From assembly GCF_029582805.1 (NCBI RefSeq), contig NZ_JAKKUT010000006.1:50788-114787 (forward strand): DNA of 64,000 nucleotides, given 5' to 3'. This DNA comes from Candidatus Synechococcus calcipolaris G9 (GTDB lineage: Bacteria; Cyanobacteriota; Cyanobacteriia; Thermosynechococcales; Thermosynechococcaceae). Positions 29,050 to 64,000 of this stretch are shown piece by piece (positions within the stretch are counted from its first letter, which is position 1; each line of letters begins with the position of its first letter). The notes beneath the pieces were generated by a model. That model searched no databases and had not been told where the DNA came from. It saw only the letters and a list, made by a program, of their open reading frames with translations. The translations under genes were made by a program, and so were the position numbers.

Positions 29050-29318
29050 TGACACTCCCCGTCACTTTTTGGAATGCAGCGAAGAACCATAGAGACGACT
29101 ACATACTTTCCCCTACCCTACTAGGGACAGAAGAACAGGCAGCGGTCAATCTGCCGGATGCTTCAGGTCTTAGGCTTTAGAGGTAAGCCTGAAGCCCTTG
29201 TGGGTGAGGTCGTTGACCCATCACAGCATTCAAGTATCACTGCATGATTTTATTAAAAATGGTATTACTATTTTGATAATTTCATGCAATCATAGATTCA
29301 TTGCTTCATAGTTTCATT
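29050..29318 (+). repeat. Conserved parA leader, copy 1 of a long duplicated block
   Basis: This non-coding stretch, found again at about 58600-58849 with few differences, contains an imperfect hairpin (AGGCTT ... AAGCCT near 29170-29190). It also has an A/T-rich region with reiterated TTCAT/ATGCAATCAT words just before the parA ATG, including the palindrome TTTCATTATGAAA over the start codon. The words are plausible binding sites for the small DNA-binding partner, as partition operons usually autoregulate. Confidence 0.5.
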
Positions 29319-29936
29319 ATGAAAATCATTGCAGTGACTGGGTTTAAGGGCGGGATTGCCAAGTCCACAACAGCGATCCACCTGGCAACATTCCTGAGCA
29401 AATCCACTCCAACTTTATTAATTGACTCTGATCCGAATCGCACCTGTGAAAAGTGGTCGGATAGAGGCAATCGTCAGCAAGCCTTTATCGTGACCAATGA
29501 GAAAGCAGCATCCCGGCATATTCCGGGCAAGTCTTATTTAGTCCTCGATACCCCTGCTAGGCCAAGCAGCAATGAATTAAAAGAAATTGCAGAAGGAGCT
29601 GACTTGGTGATTGTCCCGTGTTTACCCGATGCGTTTAGCCTCAGTGTCACCCTTGACATGATTAGTGAACTACCGAGTCAATGTTTATATCGAGTTCTGT
29701 TAACCATCTGTCCACCTGCACCGAGTAAAGAAGCAGAGCAAGTACGTGAGGCTCTAACAGAAGCCCAGATTCCCTTATTTACTGCACAAATTCGCCGTTC
29801 GGCTGGGTTCACAAAGGCCGCCGCCCTCGGAGTTGCGATTCGGGATATTCCTGATAGTCGGGGCCGCATAGCCTGGCGAGATTATGAGGCAGTAGGACGG
29901 GAAGTCATTAGTATACTTCGAGGACATCATGGTTAA
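29319..29936 (+). CDS. parA: ParA-type partition ATPase, copy 1
   Basis: A short (205-residue) ParA/MinD-family ATPase with a deviant Walker A motif (GFKGGIAKST, Lys10 and Lys15), LIDSDPN for Walker A', and LVLDTPARPS for Walker B. It has no N-terminal DNA-binding domain, as in type Ib plasmid partition systems, where the ATPase partners with a small ribbon-helix-helix protein. The ATG at 29319 is preferred because homology begins there. The 3' end overlaps the next gene by 8 bases. Near-identical copies start at 58850 and 59593. Confidence 0.9.
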   Translation: MKIIAVTGFKGGIAKSTTAIHLATFLSKSTPTLLIDSDPNRTCEKWSDRGNRQQAFIVTNEKAASRHIPGKSYLVLDTPARPSSNELKEIAEGADLVIVPCLPDAFSLSVTLDMISELPSQCLYRVLLTICPPAPSKEAEQVREALTEAQIPLFTAQIRRSAGFTKAAALGVAIRDIPDSRGRIAWRDYEAVGREVISILRGHHG

Positions 29937-30153
29937 CTACAAGCAGATTATCAGTCAAGCCAAAAAAGAGGAAGTTATACAATCCTCATTGCATGAAGCA
30001 ATGCAAGCAGGAGAAATGGTCAATCTGTGTGTGCGTGTTCCCAGTCAATGGCGTAATCACTGGAAATCGGAGGCTGCCAAGAAAGGGATAAGCCTGGGAG
30101 ACTATGTGATCCAGGCCATGAAAGAAATGTACGGTGAGCCTCCAACTGCTTAG
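29929..30153 (+). CDS. Small ribbon-helix-helix-like partner of ParA, copy 1
   Basis: 74 residues overlapping parA by 8 bases (ATGGTTAA). The C-terminal part (NLCVRVPSQWRNHWKSEAAK, KGISLGDYVIQAMKEMYG) has the beta-strand-helix-helix look of CopG/ParG-type DNA-binding proteins, preceded by a short charged tail. In type Ib systems such a protein binds the centromere and represses the operon. It is identical to the copy at 60203; the middle copy at 59460 is truncated. Confidence 0.75.
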   Translation: MVNYKQIISQAKKEEVIQSSLHEAMQAGEMVNLCVRVPSQWRNHWKSEAAKKGISLGDYVIQAMKEMYGEPPTA

Positions 30154-30231
30154 GGAAAGTGTGATGTGCAATGGAGAGCGTTCAGCGATCGCCATTTTGA
30201 TGTAGGCGGTATCCATGGATTTTTGGTATTA

Positions 30232-58547: not shown

Positions 58548-58849
58548 AAACGAATCGCCCGGAGTCTCGCTTTCACCGTGGCAACCGCGATCATTCTGAT
58601 TGCAATGCAGCGAAGAAGCATAAAGACGACTACATACTTTCCACTACCCTACTAGGGACAGAAGAACAGGCAGCGGTCAATCTGCCGGATGCTTCAGGTC
58701 TTAGGCTTTAGAGGCAAGCCTGAATCCCTTGTGGGTGAGGTCGTTGACCCATCACAGCATTCAAGTATCACTGCATGATTTTATTAAAAATGGCATTACT
58801 ACTTTCATGATTTCATGCAATCATAGATTCATTGCTTCATAGTTTCATT

Positions 58850-59467
58850 ATGAAAATCATTGCAGTGACTGGGTTTAAGGGCGGGATTGCCAAGTCCACA
58901 ACAGCGATCCACCTGGCAACATTCCTGAGCAAATCCACTCCAACTTTATTAATTGACTCTGATCCGAATCGCACCTGTGAAAAGTGGTCGGATAGAGGCA
59001 ATCGTGAGCAAGCCTTTATCGTGACCAACGAGAAAGCAGCATCCCGGCATATTCCGGGCAAGTCATATTTAGTCCTCGATACCCCTGCTAGGCCAAGCAG
59101 CAATGAATTAAAAGAAATTGCAGAAGGAGCTGACTTGGTGATTGTCCCGTGTTTACCCGATGCGTTTAGCCTCAGTGTCACCCTTGACATGATTAGTGAA
59201 CTACCGAGTCAATGTTTATATCGAGTTCTGTTAACCATCTGTCCACCTGCACCGAGTAAAGAAGCAGAGCAAGTACGTGAGGCTCTAACAGAAGCCCAGA
59301 TTCCCTTATTTACTGCACAAATTCGCCGTTCGGCTGGGTTCACAAAGGCCGCCGCCCTCGGAGTTGCGATTCGGGATATTCCTGATAGTCGGGGCCGCAT
59401 AGCCTGGCGAGATTATGAGGCAGTAGGACGGGAAGTCATTAGTATACTTCGAGGACATCATGGTTAA
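58850..59467 (+). CDS. parA: ParA-type partition ATPase, copy 2
   Basis: 205 residues, differing from copy 1 (29319) in a single residue (Glu for Gln in NREQAFIV). It keeps deviant Walker A KGGIAKST and LIDSDPN. Its small partner gene begins in the usual 8-base overlap but is truncated after 20 residues by the junction to the third copy. Confidence 0.88.
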   Translation: MKIIAVTGFKGGIAKSTTAIHLATFLSKSTPTLLIDSDPNRTCEKWSDRGNREQAFIVTNEKAASRHIPGKSYLVLDTPARPSSNELKEIAEGADLVIVPCLPDAFSLSVTLDMISELPSQCLYRVLLTICPPAPSKEAEQVREALTEAQIPLFTAQIRRSAGFTKAAALGVAIRDIPDSRGRIAWRDYEAVGREVISILRGHHG

Positions 59468-59585
59468 CTACAAGCAGATTATCAGTCAAGCCAAAAAAGA
59501 GGAAGTTATACAATCCTCATTGCATATTAAAAATGGTATTACTATTTTGATAATTTCATGCAATCATAGATTCATTGCTTCATAG
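59460..59585 (+). pseudogene. Truncated small ParA partner gene (copy 2)
   Basis: The first 20 residues (MVNYKQIISQAKKEEVIQSS...) match the 74-aa partner. At LHI the frame runs into the leader of the third parA copy and stops at 59585. The DNA-binding part is lost. Confidence 0.75.
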
Positions 59586-59592
59586 TTTCATT

Positions 59593-60210
59593 ATGAAAAT
59601 CATTGCAGTGACTGGGTTTAAGGGCGGGATTGCCAAGTCCACAACAGCGATCCACCTGGCAACATTCCTGAGCAAATCTACACCAACTTTATTAATTGAC
59701 TCCGACCCGAATCGCACCTGTGAAAAGTGGTCGGATAGAGGCAATCGTCAGCAAGCCTTTATCGTGACCAACGAGAAAGCAGCATCCCGGCATATTCCGG
59801 GCAAGTCATATTTAGTCCTCGATACCCCTGCTAGGCCAAGCAGCAATGAATTAAAAGAAATTGCAGAAGGGGCTGACTTAGTCATTGTCCCGTGTTTACC
59901 CGATGCGTTTAGCCTCAGTGTCACCCTTGACATGATTAGTGAACTACCGAGTCAATGTTTATATCGAGTTCTGTTAACCATCTGTCCACCTGCACCGAGT
60001 AAAGAGGCAGAGCAAGTACGGGAGGCTCTAACAGAAGCCCAGATTCCCTTATTTACTGCACAAATTCGCCGTTCGTCTGGGTTCACAAAGGCCGCCGCCC
60101 TCGGAGTTGCGATTCGGGATATTCCTGATAGTCGGGGCCGCATAGCCTGGCGAGATTATGAGGCAGTAGGACGGGAAGTCATTAGTATACTTCGAGGACA
60201 TCATGGTTAA
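59593..60210 (+). CDS. parA: ParA-type partition ATPase, copy 3
   Basis: 205 residues, nearly identical to copies 1 and 2 (Ser for Ala in RRSSGF). It starts 743 bp after copy 2, so copies 2 and 3 form a tandem duplication. Its leader (ATTAAAAATGGTATTACTAT) matches copy 1 better than copy 2, suggesting that it derives from the 29-kb locus by recombination. A complete partner gene follows with the 8-base overlap. Confidence 0.9.
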   Translation: MKIIAVTGFKGGIAKSTTAIHLATFLSKSTPTLLIDSDPNRTCEKWSDRGNRQQAFIVTNEKAASRHIPGKSYLVLDTPARPSSNELKEIAEGADLVIVPCLPDAFSLSVTLDMISELPSQCLYRVLLTICPPAPSKEAEQVREALTEAQIPLFTAQIRRSSGFTKAAALGVAIRDIPDSRGRIAWRDYEAVGREVISILRGHHG

Positions 60211-60427
60211 CTACAAGCAGATTATCAGTCAAGCCAAAAAAGAGGAAGTTATACAATCCTCATTGCATGAAGCAATGCAAGCAGGAGAAATGGTCAATCT
60301 GTGTGTGCGTGTTCCCAGTCAATGGCGTAATCACTGGAAATCGGAGGCTGCCAAGAAAGGGATAAGCCTGGGAGACTATGTGATCCAGGCCATGAAAGAA
60401 ATGTACGGTGAGCCTCCAACTGCTTAG
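60203..60427 (+). CDS. Small ribbon-helix-helix-like partner of ParA, copy 3
   Basis: Identical 74-residue sequence to the copy at 29929: NLCVRVPSQWRNHWKSEAAK and SLGDYVIQAMKEMYG. It directly precedes the G-rich repeat region, which is a candidate for its DNA target (inference). Confidence 0.75.
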   Translation: MVNYKQIISQAKKEEVIQSSLHEAMQAGEMVNLCVRVPSQWRNHWKSEAAKKGISLGDYVIQAMKEMYGEPPTA

Positions 60428-62085
60428 GGAAAGTGTGATGTGCAATGGAGAGCGTTCAGCGATCGCCATTTTGATGTAGGCGGTATCCATGGATTTTTGG
60501 TAGGTGGCCATGGGCAGGGGCGGGGATGCCTGGGGCCCGGTCGGTATCCGTAATCCGTAGGGTCATTGTGGGGGCTGGCCAGGGTGTAGGCCCGGGCCGG
60601 TAGCTATCCTCTAGGGAGGAATGGGCAATGTGGGGACCCCATGGGGTAGCGGCCCGGTGGTATCCACGACTAGATCGGTGCATCCGGTAGCCGTGGGTTT
60701 CCTGCCGAGGGCCAAGGGGCGGACTATGTTTCAGGGTTTTGAGCGGGGAGCTTTTGGGCATTTTTGCGGCGGCCCGGAGGGCATAGTCGGGGTGGCCCAT
60801 GGGGACTGATGACTGGGAAAAATGGAGGGCGATGGGCAGATGGGCAGCGATCGCTATGGGGCGGTATCCGTGGGGTGGCCCGGAGGGCATGGGGAAGATG
60901 GGGCAGCGGTGATCGGTATCCATCGTTTGTATCCATGGGGCAGAGCGAGGGCATGGGCAGGGGCATTGTGTTTGTGATTTGTGATCGGGGCATGGTCGGG
61001 GCGATGGGGAATATTGGGATGCAGGGTGGGGGATGGTATCAATAGGAGTGGTAGTGCAGTTAAAGGCTTGCTAGGACTGTGATTCAGGCAAAAAAATCAA
61101 AAAGTGGTAGCCCAGTTTTATCGGCGGTATCCATGGTTTGCATCCATGATCGGATGGGCGACGATGGCATGGGGAGCTTCGGGGGGATGGCATGGGGCGG
61201 CCCGGTGTGTGTGCCTGAGTCCGATGGGGAAAGTGGATGGCGATGCCAGGGGGTCATGGAGTGGTGGCCCATGGGGGGTATCCGTAATCCGTAGATGGCG
61301 ATGGCGATCGCTGTGGCAGATCAATGGTATCCATGATCAGATCGGTATCCGGTGGCCATGGGGGGAGCTTAGGGGGGAGGGCAGCGGCTCATCCCGATGG
61401 CGGGTATTGGGGGCGGCCTGCTCCATGGGGTTAGCGATCGCTATTTTGTGGTGGGCATGGCCATGGTCGGGGTGGTGGCCAATGGGGGCGATTGGCAGAG
61501 GGACTATTTTGTGATGGGCTGTGGGGCGGACGATGGGGCCTGTGTCCGGCGCGGGGAAGTCCAGGGCAGGGCGGCCATGATCGAAACGGTAGCCAGGGGG
61601 TGGCCAAGGGACTGATCCGGTGGCGCGGTGGTTTCCATGGGGGAAATAGAGGGCGGCCATGGGGCCTATTCTGTGATCGGGGCATGGGGGAGCTATGGGC
61701 CCGGTGGCCATGGGGTATCCGTATTTTGTGCTGGGCGATGGGGGGAATGGGGGAAGTCCATGGCCCCGTCGGCCGGTAGCCGTGGACATGGGGCGGCCAT
61801 GGGCAGAGCGATCGCTATTGTGATGGGCTGAGTCAGATCGTAAGTAAATAGAAGTCTTACGGGGGCTGGGTTTCACCGAGAAAACTGCCAAAACCGTAAG
61901 TGAAACTTGATGGAGGGTGGCCATGGGGGGATGGGCATGGCGATGGGGAAAATGGAGGGCGGCGGCCGGTATCCACGACTAGATCGGTGCATCCGTCGGC
62001 CGGTGGCCAGGGGGTGGCCCGTGGCCATGGGGCGGCCTGGGGTATTTTTGCGGCGGCCGTGGCCATGGGCCCGGGCCGGTGATCG
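60428..62085 (+). repeat. G-rich mosaic of short repeated words, mostly non-coding
   Basis: The + strand here is strongly biased toward G over C and built from recurring words: GGTATCC (about 11 times in this stretch), CCATGGGG, GGCCATGG, CCCGGTGG, GAAGTCCATGG, and HIP1-linked GCGATCGCTAT. Long open frames occur on both strands but show low-complexity, mutually conflicting translations, so no gene is called. The sequence GGTATCCACGACTAGATCGG recurs at 60659, 61966 and (one change) 63496. Confidence 0.75.
60534..60765 (+). repeat. 232-bp long direct repeat, copy A
   Basis: This block, from GGCCCGGTCGGTATCCG to the GCATTTTT near 60765, is found again at 63369-63600 with only a few substitutions. 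It contains GGGTCATTGTGGGGGCTGGC and CTATCCTCTAGGGAGGAATG. No coding sense is apparent. Confidence 0.85.
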
Positions 62086-62226
62086 CTAGGGCATGGGGCG
62101 GTCGGTATCCATAATCGGTAGCTCATGCAGGGTCATTTCTTCCAGCATTGCCACAGCTTTCGCTTGCGCCTTGGCTTGTGCCTCATGCGACATTTGACTG
62201 CGAAGATTGGAAAATTTCTTAGCCAT
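62086..62226 (-). pseudogene. HigA-like antitoxin, N-terminal remnant
   Basis: 46 residues start at 62226 (MAKKFSNLRSQMSHEAQAKA, then KAVAMLEEMTLHEL), the typical opening of HigA-type XRE antitoxins. After HEL the sequence passes into the G-rich repeat mosaic (PIMDTDRPMP) and stops, before any HTH. The gene has been overrun by the repeats. Confidence 0.7.
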
Positions 62227-62282
62227 CGTTTACGGCCTCTCGCTTCAACTGCTCTAGGTGATCATCGTAGAGGTTCGGCGAT
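62222..62282 (-). pseudogene. HigB-like toxin, C-terminal remnant
   Basis: About 18 residues (PNLYDDHLEQLKREAVNDG) end with a stop that overlaps the HigA-like start. This matches the C-terminal tail of phage-derived Gp49/HigB-type toxins. Upstream, beyond about 62282, is repeat mosaic. Confidence 0.5.
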
Positions 62283-62459
62283 CGCTATTTTGATGAGCCA
62301 GGGGGTCGGGCCCGGTGGGTATCCGTAATTTGTAGTTGCTGCTGGAATCGGGTGGCAGACAACGTTTATGTTAGGTGAGCAATTATGAGATGATGCCGAA
62401 CCACTTGCGAGACAGATGTTAGAAGGTCTTTTAGATGCTGAATTGATGCAAAGCTAAAG
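62283..62459 (+). other. Short non-coding gap, partly G-rich mosaic
   Basis: It contains GGTATCCGTAATTTG and CGGGCCCGGTGG words from the mosaic, then ordinary sequence near 62340-62459. No gene is recognised. Confidence 0.4.
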
Positions 62460-63032
62460 TTAGGAGGTAGTTTTAGAAACACACCACTGCACAGATCGCC
62501 CCTGCGACTGAGTACGGACAAAGTTAAAGCCGTGTCGTCTGAATGCTTGATGCTTAGTTAAGGACGAACCACTAACCCCTAACAACTCGGCTAATTCACC
62601 TGTACTAAACACCCACTCATTCTGTGCAGCTTCTTCAAGTAAACGCAGCCGATTCAGTAAAACCTGTCCTACATCGGGTCTAGTTGCGTCTGCAAAGGCT
62701 TCCGCAAGCAGCATTAACCCTTCCATAGATCGAGATGAAGCAAGTGCTGCACTCATCTTTTTCGTTAGCTGTGTCGATGATGTTGGTGTATCAATGACAT
62801 CATCAATACCGAAATCTGCAACTGATCGACCACGCCCTAGATGTTCGTGCAACCGCTCTAATTCCTTGATCTGGTCTTCCGTCAGAAAGCTATTGCGACC
62901 AATCTTAACGGGTTCTATACCAAGGGCATTCATCCGGCTGTACAGTGTGGGACGCTTTAACCTTGTCCGTTCTAAGTAATCTTTAATGGATGTTAAAGCC
63001 TCGTCTTCGTACAAAATTTCAGCGTCAGTCAT
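62460..63032 (-). CDS. Putative DNA-binding protein (190 aa)
   Basis: Starts at 63032 (MTDAEILYEDEALTSIKDYL). Two helix-turn-helix-like parts are visible. Residues 20-55 (LKRPTLYSRMNALGIEPVKI, NSFLTEDQIKELERL) resemble a MerR-type wing. Residues 140-165 (STGELAELLGVSGSSLTKHQ) look like a second HTH. No family name was certain. Two 17-bp near-identical sites lie 7-66 bp upstream of its start and a third is inside its coding region, so it may be autoregulated. It sits alone in the repeat mosaic. Confidence 0.6.
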   Translation of the reverse strand: MTDAEILYEDEALTSIKDYLERTRLKRPTLYSRMNALGIEPVKIGRNSFLTEDQIKELERLHEHLGRGRSVADFGIDDVIDTPTSSTQLTKKMSAALASSRSMEGLMLLAEAFADATRPDVGQVLLNRLRLLEEAAQNEWVFSTGELAELLGVSGSSLTKHQAFRRHGFNFVRTQSQGRSVQWCVSKTTS

Positions 63033-63038
63033 GTCACC

Positions 63039-63098
63039 GTGTCAATAACATCATCGACAATAATCTGTCACCGATGTCGAAGTGTCAATGACTTCATC
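63039..63098. promoter_or_regulatory. Iteron-like sites upstream of the 190-aa gene
   Basis: GTGTCAATAACATCATC (63039-63055) and GTGTCAATGACTTCATC (63082-63098) are 43 bp apart, about four helical turns. GTATCAATGACATCATC (62788-62804) is a third copy inside the gene. They fit binding sites of the encoded HTH protein. Confidence 0.5.
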
Positions 63099-63109
63099 AA
63101 CAAACCACT

Positions 63110-63888
63110 GATCGCTGGGCCCCCCTCTAGGGAGAAATGATCATTGTGGGGGGCCATGGGGCGGCCCGGAGGGTATGAGTCCGGTGGGGGAAGTCCATGG
63201 GGGCGGCTATGGTTTGCATCCATGATCGGATCGTTGTCCGGCGGACATGGAAGGGGCATCCGTAGATGGGCTATGAAGTGGGCGGCGATCGCTAGTCCAT
63301 GGGCAGTGGATTTGGGCGATCAGTCCTGGGGGAAAAATTTGGTAGGGGTTGGCGGCCGAGGGCAGGGCGGCCCGGTCGGTATCCGTAATCCGTAGGGTCA
63401 TTGTGGGGGCTGGCCAGGGTGTAGGGCCCGGCCCGGTAGCTATCCTCTAGGGAGGAATGGGCAATGTGGGGGCCCCATGGGGTAGCGGCCCGGTGGTATC
63501 CACGATTAGATCGGTGCATCCGGTAGCCGCGGGTTTCCTGCCGAGGGCCAAGGGGCGGACTATGTTTCAGGGTTTTGAGTGGGGAGTTTTTTGGCATTTT
63601 CCCCATGGATGGTTGGCCCGGCGGCCGGTGGGCAGGACTGAGGCCGGGGGGTGAAGTCCATGGGGCATGGTCGGGCTGGCCCATGGGGACTGATCCGGCG
63701 GCGCGATGGTGGACATGGGGCCGATGGGCGGCGATCTCTAGTCTGATGGGCCGATGGGCTATGAGGGTGGCGGGCCCGGTGGCTGTGGGGCATCCGCAGA
63801 TAAGGGAGGGACGAGGGCGATGGATGGGGCCCGGTGGGTGAAGTCCATGGGGCCGATAGTCCATGGGTGGATGGGGATGGGTCGGGAA
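63110..63888 (+). repeat. G-rich mosaic, right-hand part
   Basis: It continues the word mosaic of 60.4-62.1 kb and includes copy B of the 232-bp repeat at 63369-63600. GGTTTGCATCCATGATCGGAT at about 63211 also occurs near 61136. Strong G-over-C strand bias continues. No credible gene is seen. Confidence 0.7.
63369..63600 (+). repeat. 232-bp long direct repeat, copy B
   Basis: Second copy of the block at 60534-60765, in the same orientation, with a handful of base changes. Confidence 0.85.
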
Positions 63889-63936
63889 ATAAGTTAGATA
63901 AGTTAGATAAGTTATCGGTGAGCCGTAGATAAGTTA
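63889..63936 (+). repeat. Four ATAAGTTA repeats near the window end
   Basis: ATAAGTTA occurs at 63889, 63898, 63907 and 63929. The first three are spaced 9 bp apart. The third and fourth are each followed by a related word (TCGGTGAG, ACAGTGAG). They stand out from the G-rich mosaic and could be small iterons. No adjoining gene is seen before the edge; the last 60 bases show nothing. Confidence 0.55.
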
Positions 63937-64000
63937 ACAGTGAGTCCTAGGGCATTTTAGCGAGGGGCAGAAGGGGCTAGAAGGCGGTAGACGCTAGGGA

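What the first reader, a model, noticed from the sequence alone, without database searches (positions are those of the whole stretch)
60428..63888. G-rich, strand-biased word mosaic that overran genes
For over 3 kb the + strand is made of a small vocabulary (GGTATCC about 15 times, CCATGGGG, CCCGGTGG, GCGATCGCTAT), with extreme G-over-C bias, a 232-bp duplicate, and a higBA module reduced to fragments within it. Base composition is much richer in G+C than the rest of the window. It adjoins a parA/partner cassette, so it could be a centromere-like array, a G-quadruplex-prone structure, or a new class of expanding repeat. CCATGG contains CCA on both strands, the core reported for Ssp phosphorothioation, but a link is speculative.
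Basis: partly seen in the sequence, partly recalled or inferred. Interest (0 to 1): 0.7.

Follow-up and report, generated by a model that had tools for sequence, protein, structure and literature searches.

The report
One-directional, self-copied G-rich repeat mosaic
About 2.5 kb of apparently non-coding DNA in a cyanobacterium, with a strongly G-rich strand, is a patchwork of overlapping copies of itself in which every detectable pair points the same way; it likely grew by repeated local copying errors rather than serving as a protein-binding array, and it may be a useful place to watch a bacterial repeat expand.

Summary
Two blocks (60422-62138, 63107-63912) share a small vocabulary: 15 GGTATCC and 17 CCATGGGG on the + strand against under 1 expected, GC about 0.6, G skew 0.28-0.42. 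Between them lies ordinary DNA with a plasmid-type gene. The window ends where contig C6 ends. The only other long block found is a diverged, colinear copy at the end of contig C1.

All 21 detectable internal duplicate pairs are direct; 60 shuffles give none. Word enrichment survives masking of those copies. Outside the arrays the words are at composition level, and between the C6 and C1 copies they are no better conserved than their surroundings. Quadruplex motifs, folding and ORF length are at or near shuffle level. The ParA partner has candidate sites, phased octamers, directly upstream of parA. No homologous array turned up in 387 other sampled genomes of the class.

Best reading: neutral DNA grown by local same-strand patch copying and unequal crossing-over in a duplication-prone, plasmid-like stretch. 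A recombinant of the two 232-bp copies is encoded on another contig. New variant of a known kind.

The parts
60422..62138 (+). mosaic block A (G-rich strand = +)
   Evidence: word model, 871 bits; word counts
63107..63912 (+). mosaic block B
   Evidence: word model, 420 bits
60534..60764 (+). 232-bp duplicate, copy 1
   Evidence: 96.6% identical to copy 2
63369..63600 (+). 232-bp duplicate, copy 2
   Evidence: exchange with copy 1 seen in P0002
61783..62121 (+). part of block A with a colinear, patchy copy at the end of contig C1 (L024 14127-14479)
63569..63959 (+). end of block B, colinear with the last 361 bases of contig C1
   Evidence: 68% over 403 columns; C1 ends there and C6 goes on for 41 bases
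62119..62275 (-). gene remnant: toxin-like C-terminus (62222-62275) and antitoxin-like N-terminus (62119-62226) between mosaic words
   Evidence: translation, coordinates; family not confirmed
62460..63032 (-). 190-aa gene of a plasmid-borne family, probably DNA-binding
   Evidence: tblastn: 22 plasmid records, best 40% on pSYN6312.01; HTH hits below Pfam cut-off
58782..60268 (+). parA/partner cassette duplicated in tandem (two 744-bp copies, the partner gene cut in the first)
   Evidence: 98.0% identity; 22 of 74 partner residues in the first copy
59593..60210 (+). parA of the second copy
   Evidence: Pfam CbiA/AAA_31 above cut-off
60203..60427 (+). 74-aa ParA partner
   Evidence: ParD/HicB-like only below cut-off; beside ParA on a Fischerella plasmid
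59554..59593 (+). five octamers in 8-base phase abutting the parA start, candidate partner-binding site
29170..30228 (+). another cassette copy; its last 75 bases (30154-30228) are the first mosaic bases

Best explanation
The array appears non-coding, and its same-direction, overlapping copies likely arose by repeated local patch copying (template switching during break repair, or replication slippage) together with unequal crossing-over, in a duplication-prone stretch that is probably plasmid-derived. Shown: every detectable internal duplicate pair is direct (21 of 21), the copies range from 97% identity over 232 bp to barely alignable, a diverged colinear copy ends contig C1, and the neighbouring parA cassette is itself directly duplicated. 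Inferred: the polymerase-level mechanism, the lack of a selected function, and that growth of the array broke the toxin/antitoxin-like genes. The G bias is predicted to follow from one G-rich seed copied only in its own orientation. The recombinant P0002 suggests that the 2.8-kb unit between the 232-bp copies can be amplified or looped out; this step is untested.
For: 21 direct, 0 inverted self-similar pairs; none in 60 shuffles; 40 ordinary stretches average 0.05 direct and 0.10 inverted. Words still enriched after masking second copies: CCATGGGG 9 against 0.56, GGTATCC 8 against 0.16. Homology between the C6 and C1 arrays comes in islands more uneven than uniform divergence. Words are no better conserved than their surroundings, as expected without selection on them. 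Tandem 744-bp cassette duplication and a further copy carrying 75 mosaic bases. P0002 joins copy-2-left to copy-1-right. 6-base palindromes in excess in block A: 46 against 31.7, above all 300 shuffles, which would suit break-prone DNA (compare PMC7043297, abstract).
Against: The mechanism is read from one genome with no second isolate or reads. Enrichment after masking means much of the vocabulary is not explained by visible duplicates. Palindrome excess is weaker in block B and in C1 (within the shuffle range). P0002's contig is of unstated source and could be a misassembly. In C1 the cassette is not followed by mosaic; the C1 array lies some 12 kb further on, so cassette and mosaic do not always travel together.
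Confidence: 0.6

Rival explanations
1. Nested insertions of small mobile repeats (MITE-like or small dispersed repeats) built the mosaic.
For: Short recurring units; word enrichment beyond the alignable copies; transposase genes and repeats near the C1 array.
Against: Whole-genome DNA searches find array sequence only at the ends of C6 and C1 apart from short fragments; the word model finds no other long block in 52 own loci (994 kb, 14 of them also used as background); all pairs are direct, while mobile repeats are expected in both orientations (argument in PMC2670323, passage).
Confidence: 0.14
2. A functional protein-binding array, such as a partition site for the adjacent ParA system or a recombination or termination zone.
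For: It adjoins the parA/partner genes; the words are far above chance and strand-biased.
Against: Words are not better conserved than surroundings between the two arrays (identity 0.54-0.67 inside, 0.64-0.75 outside). A candidate partner site, phased octamers, abuts the parA start; 8-base-phased repeats of another sequence, seen by eye, also abut parA on a Fischerella plasmid. The C1 cassette is not followed by mosaic.
Confidence: 0.1
3. Both arrays are the outer ends of a linear replicon, or the two arms that meet at one junction.
For: Both arrays face outward with the G-rich strand running toward the contig end, and C1 stops within 41 bases of the homologous position at the C6 end.
Against: Most other contig ends compared also lie in repeats (C2/C5 326 bases identical, C7/C5 285 identical, C1/C7 and C2/C8 starts 90-93%, C4 ends in parA), so breaks at repeats are the rule in this assembly. 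No terminal structure was tested. Synteny with PCC 6312 is too scrambled to help.
Confidence: 0.05
4. A structured or G-quadruplex-forming transcript, or proline-rich proteins on the C-rich strand.
For: G4Hunter means 0.73-0.83; minus-strand ORFs up to 195 aa; long-loop quadruplex motifs in block B 8 against 4.8, reached by 5 of 200 shuffles.
Against: The other 8 of 9 quadruplex tests are at or below shuffle level; folding z-scores -0.12, -0.58, -1.15; ORFs as long occur in 42, 11 and 130 of 200 shuffles for A, B and C1, B being borderline; one-base indels separate the two 232-bp copies; no Pfam match for the two ORFs tested; no Rfam match in the arrays.
Confidence: 0.05

Closest known systems
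Palindromic-repeat-filled intergenic DNA of Volvox carteri organelles (PMC2670323, passages read)
   Same: Non-coding DNA made of short recurring units that bloats one region.
   Different: There the repeats occur in both orientations on a strand and throughout the intergenic DNA; here detectable copies are direct only and long blocks were found at two loci only.
Break-repair expansion of green-algal plastid DNA (PMC7043297, abstract and outline read)
   Same: Proposed growth of non-coding DNA by error-prone repair at repeats.
   Different: Bacterial, two loci, G-rich, direct copies; no rate data here.
Very small mobile repeated elements of cyanobacteria (Elhai et al. 2008; seen as a reference line only, paper not held; content recalled)
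   Same: Short repeated units in cyanobacterial intergenic DNA.
   Different: Those are dispersed through a genome; these words are not enriched outside the arrays.
HIP1, GCGATCGC (PMC4390886; listing abstract and one reference passage seen)
   Same: GCGATCGC occurs 7 times in the region.
   Different: HIP1 is enriched across the genome (1360 counts over both strands against 242 expected in the 580-kb sample); the other words are local.
Bacterial minisatellites / tandem repeats (recalled class)
   Same: Direct copies, unequal exchange between copies likely.
   Different: No single period; patches of about 23 to 232 bases lie scattered and overlapping.

Membership tests
Small dispersed / mobile repeats | Copies scattered through the genome | tested here: not met
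   Whole-genome DNA matches only at the two array loci plus short fragments; words at composition level elsewhere
Small dispersed / mobile repeats | Copies in both orientations | tested here: not met
   21 direct, 0 inverted
Minisatellite / tandem repeat | Head-to-tail copies of one period | tested here: not met
   Pairs at many spacings, no common period; Tandem Repeats Finder was not run
ParA/RHH centromere | Phased short repeats bound by the partner | tested here: inconclusive
   Phased octamers lie upstream of parA, not in the array; binding not testable here
Integron cassette array | Integron integrase in the genome | tested here: not met
   TIGR02249: best 76.9 bits, cut-off 265; all 14 control genomes also gave sub-cut-off matches; a partial 148-aa frame on C2 was not followed
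Structured RNA | Folding beyond shuffles or an Rfam match | tested here: not met
   z -0.12, -0.58 (DNA parameters), -1.15; no Rfam match in the arrays
Linear-replicon end | Homologous terminal sequences with nothing beyond them | tested here: inconclusive
   Homologous contig ends, but contigs here usually break at repeats
Break-repair-grown non-coding DNA | Direct patch copies of graded age | tested here: met
   Identities 67-100% among 21 direct pairs, patchy islands between arrays
Break-repair-grown non-coding DNA | High indel and duplication rate among isolates | not testable with these tools
   No second isolate was found

The most novel reading that the evidence does not exclude
An orientation-locked, self-expanding bacterial DNA array: short patches are copied again and again in one direction only, the 2.8-kb unit between the 232-bp repeats is amplified or looped out, genes in its path are cut up, and the process still runs at two outward-facing loci that may be the unfinished ends of the replicon.
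Probability: 0.2. Interest if true: 0.65.

Novelty: new variant of a known kind. Interest (0 to 1): 0.42.

Why it matters
Word mosaics of this sort are described for bloated organelle genomes, where transposition and faulty break repair compete as explanations (PMC2670323, PMC7043297). A small bacterial case with two diverged, colinear copies, one orientation and a possible recombination junction would let the copying mechanism be tested directly by resequencing and with repair mutants. It also shows how such C-rich strands yield spurious proline-rich ORFs in protein databases (P0001-P0004).

Tried and rejected
Replichore-oriented motif (KOPS-like): the capped place list seemed to show CCATGGGG on one strand only along contig C2; sampled stretches of C2 show both strands. 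Rejected.

rRNA operon as the cause of the contig ends: RF00177 found no 16S in the own genome (that search rang in only 9 of 14 controls). 23S, two tRNAs and 5S lie together on C2, 16S itself was not matched there. The C1 and C6 ends are therefore not explained by the one operon seen.

Synteny with PCC 6312, to see whether the ends of C1 and C6 adjoin: the matches scatter over its chromosome. No help.

Exact patterns in public collections: an 18-base pattern hit two unrelated genomes; a 14-base pattern hit at least 120 viral contigs and a degenerate 19-base pattern 20, taken as chance and not read. A triple-GGTATCC pattern hit 7 of 386 phylum genomes and not the own one; the printed matches look like short-period tandem repeats.

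DNA similarity: 1 of 388 class genomes at 1e-6, the own one; 3 of 58 relatives at 1e-3, the own one and two short weak matches (1.9e-4, 8.1e-4), taken as chance. Plasmids: one 71-base match in Crinalium. Phages: none.

Protein searches: mosaic ORFs found the window's own ORFs and P0002 or only the own contig. The 190-aa gene found only itself among 5.8 billion proteins, yet tblastn found it in 22 plasmid records: the word-based search missed them.

Palindrome control on ordinary DNA was spoiled by masked N runs counted as palindromes and is not used.

Composition screen: besides the array, 3 of 3771 own windows (L022 two, L027 one) and 1 of 1539 PCC 6312 windows pass GC > 0.54 and |skew| > 0.25; they were not followed.

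CCATGGGG is 357 against 56 for its reversed control genome-wide, which looks like enrichment; a Markov model of the sampled DNA removes it (57 seen, 64 expected).

In print: searches listed nothing that names this array; only titles and abstract starts were seen, and the library holds open-licence papers only.
Full report
WHAT IS THERE. The window is the last 64 kb of contig C6 of an eight-contig, 3.3-Mb genome. G009, given as of the same family, is Synechococcus sp. PCC 6312: its second contig has the length (23,223) and the match position of plasmid pSYN6312.01. A 2025 paper lists PCC 6312 in the Thermosynechococcaceae (PMC11750575, passages), so the window's organism is probably of that family (inference).

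A word model trained on the C6 array alone delimits two blocks, 60422-62138 and 63107-63912. Over 52 other loci of the own genome (994 kb; 14 of them also served as background) it finds one other long block, the last 1.08 kb of contig C1 (400 bits), and one small patch near it (31 bits). In 20 loci (400 kb) of PCC 6312 it finds none. DNA searches of the whole own genome agree: matches lie at the ends of C6 and C1, plus a 75-base copy at 30154-30228 and a 27-base match on C2.

HOW IT IS BUILT. Aligning 60428-63900 with itself gives 21 similar pairs, all direct. Sixty shuffles give none; 40 ordinary stretches average 0.05 direct and 0.10 inverted pairs. Identities run from 67% to 100%, lengths from 23 to 232 bases. 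With the second member of each pair masked, 1675 bases in segments of at least 20 remain (shorter ones were dropped), and the words are still enriched: CCATGGGG 9 against 0.56, GGTATCC 8 against 0.16, GCGATCGC 6 against 0.03. Older, eroded copies or some other process must lie beneath the visible ones.

The C1 array is colinear with parts of the C6 array in two blocks. Identity comes in islands (up to 38 identical columns) amid unalignable sequence: the spread of local identity is 0.277 and 0.234, against maxima of 0.197 and 0.187 in 23 and 18 simulations that matched the mean identity. The over-represented words are not the conserved part: identity is 0.54-0.67 inside and 0.64-0.75 outside, and 382 to 845 of 1000 rotations reach the observed value. 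That speaks against selection on the words as binding sites.

WHAT SURROUNDS IT. To the left stands a parA/partner cassette, duplicated in tandem (744 bp, 98.0%); another copy at 29170-30228 carries the first 75 mosaic bases; pieces lie on C1 and at the end of C4. On C1, parA is split around a transposase-like ORF, the partner gene follows, and the mosaic does not come next but some 12 kb later. Between the two mosaic blocks lie a 157-base remnant reading as toxin-like and antitoxin-like ends and a 190-aa gene whose relatives sit on 22 cyanobacterial plasmid records, the best (40%) on pSYN6312.01. On Synechocystis pSYSM the relative lies two genes from a gene annotated as DNA phosphorothioation-associated methyltransferase. 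The neighbourhood therefore looks plasmid-derived and duplication-prone (inference); the start of C6, by contrast, matches the PCC 6312 chromosome.

A POSSIBLE RECOMBINANT. The protein database holds a 155-aa ORF (P0002) on a 2158-base contig whose source is not given. Its residues 1-109 equal P0003 (copy 1 and its right flank) and its residues 86-155 equal P0001 (copy 2 and its left flank). On the + strand this is copy-2-left followed by copy-1-right, as a tandem duplication or excised circle of the 2.8-kb unit would give; the exchange lies between two markers about 75 bases apart. A misassembly would look the same.

WHAT IT IS NOT. Quadruplex motifs are at or below shuffle level in 8 of 9 tests; the exception is long-loop motifs in block B (8 against 4.8; 5 of 200 shuffles as high). 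Folding z-scores are -0.12, -0.58 and -1.15. The longest minus-strand ORFs are matched by 42, 11 and 130 of 200 shuffles in A, B and C1, so B is borderline, but one-base indels separate the two 232-bp copies and the two ORFs tested match no Pfam family. No Rfam family matches in the arrays. The ParA partner has a more likely site: octamers in 8-base phase abutting the parA start; on a Fischerella plasmid with a 36%-identical partner, 8-base-phased repeats of another sequence, seen by eye, also abut parA. Integron integrase: nothing above the cut-off. Outside the arrays the words are at composition level; GGTATCC is 608 against 505 for its reversed control genome-wide.

MECHANISM. Shown: direct-only copies of graded age, patchy homology between two arrays, direct duplications next door. 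Inferred: template switching or slippage and unequal crossing-over as the cause; neutrality; damage to genes by growth of the array. The G bias needs no separate cause if a G-rich seed is copied only in its own orientation. In Volvox organelle DNA, repeats in both orientations were taken to suggest transposition rather than recombination (PMC2670323, passage); by that reasoning the pattern here favours recombination or replication. Faulty repair of breaks at palindromic repeats has been proposed for green-algal plastids (PMC7043297, abstract); 6-base palindromes exceed all 300 shuffles in block A (46 against 31.7) but not in B or C1.

VERDICT. A real, unusual and probably functionless array: a new variant of a known kind. 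Points worth a long-read check are its possible continuing expansion and the fact that the C1 array stops within 41 bases of the homologous position at the C6 end, although most contig ends compared here lie in repeats.

Noticed in passing
window 61047-61117: 71 bases inside the mosaic are 82% like an unannotated stretch of a Crinalium plasmid; perhaps a mobile-element remnant caught in the array.
   Followed up: partly
window 62460-63032: The 190-aa gene in the array belongs to a plasmid-borne family (22 records); on Synechocystis pSYSM and a PCC 7338 plasmid it is followed by an HNH endonuclease gene, on pSYSM then by a phosphorothioation-associated methyltransferase gene.
   Followed up: partly
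L018 (contig C3): The 6075-base contig repeats its first 1153 bases exactly at its end: probably a circular plasmid of about 4.9 kb.
   Followed up: no
window 29170-30228, 58782-60427; L024 251-2211; L019 7115-7507: A parA/partner cassette occurs in several copies and pieces in one genome, with upstream phased octamers in the 4 copies read.
   Followed up: partly
L267 (C2:1916359-1916550): A 148-aa open frame matches the first 64 positions of the integron-integrase model at 76.9 bits, below its cut-off.
   Followed up: no
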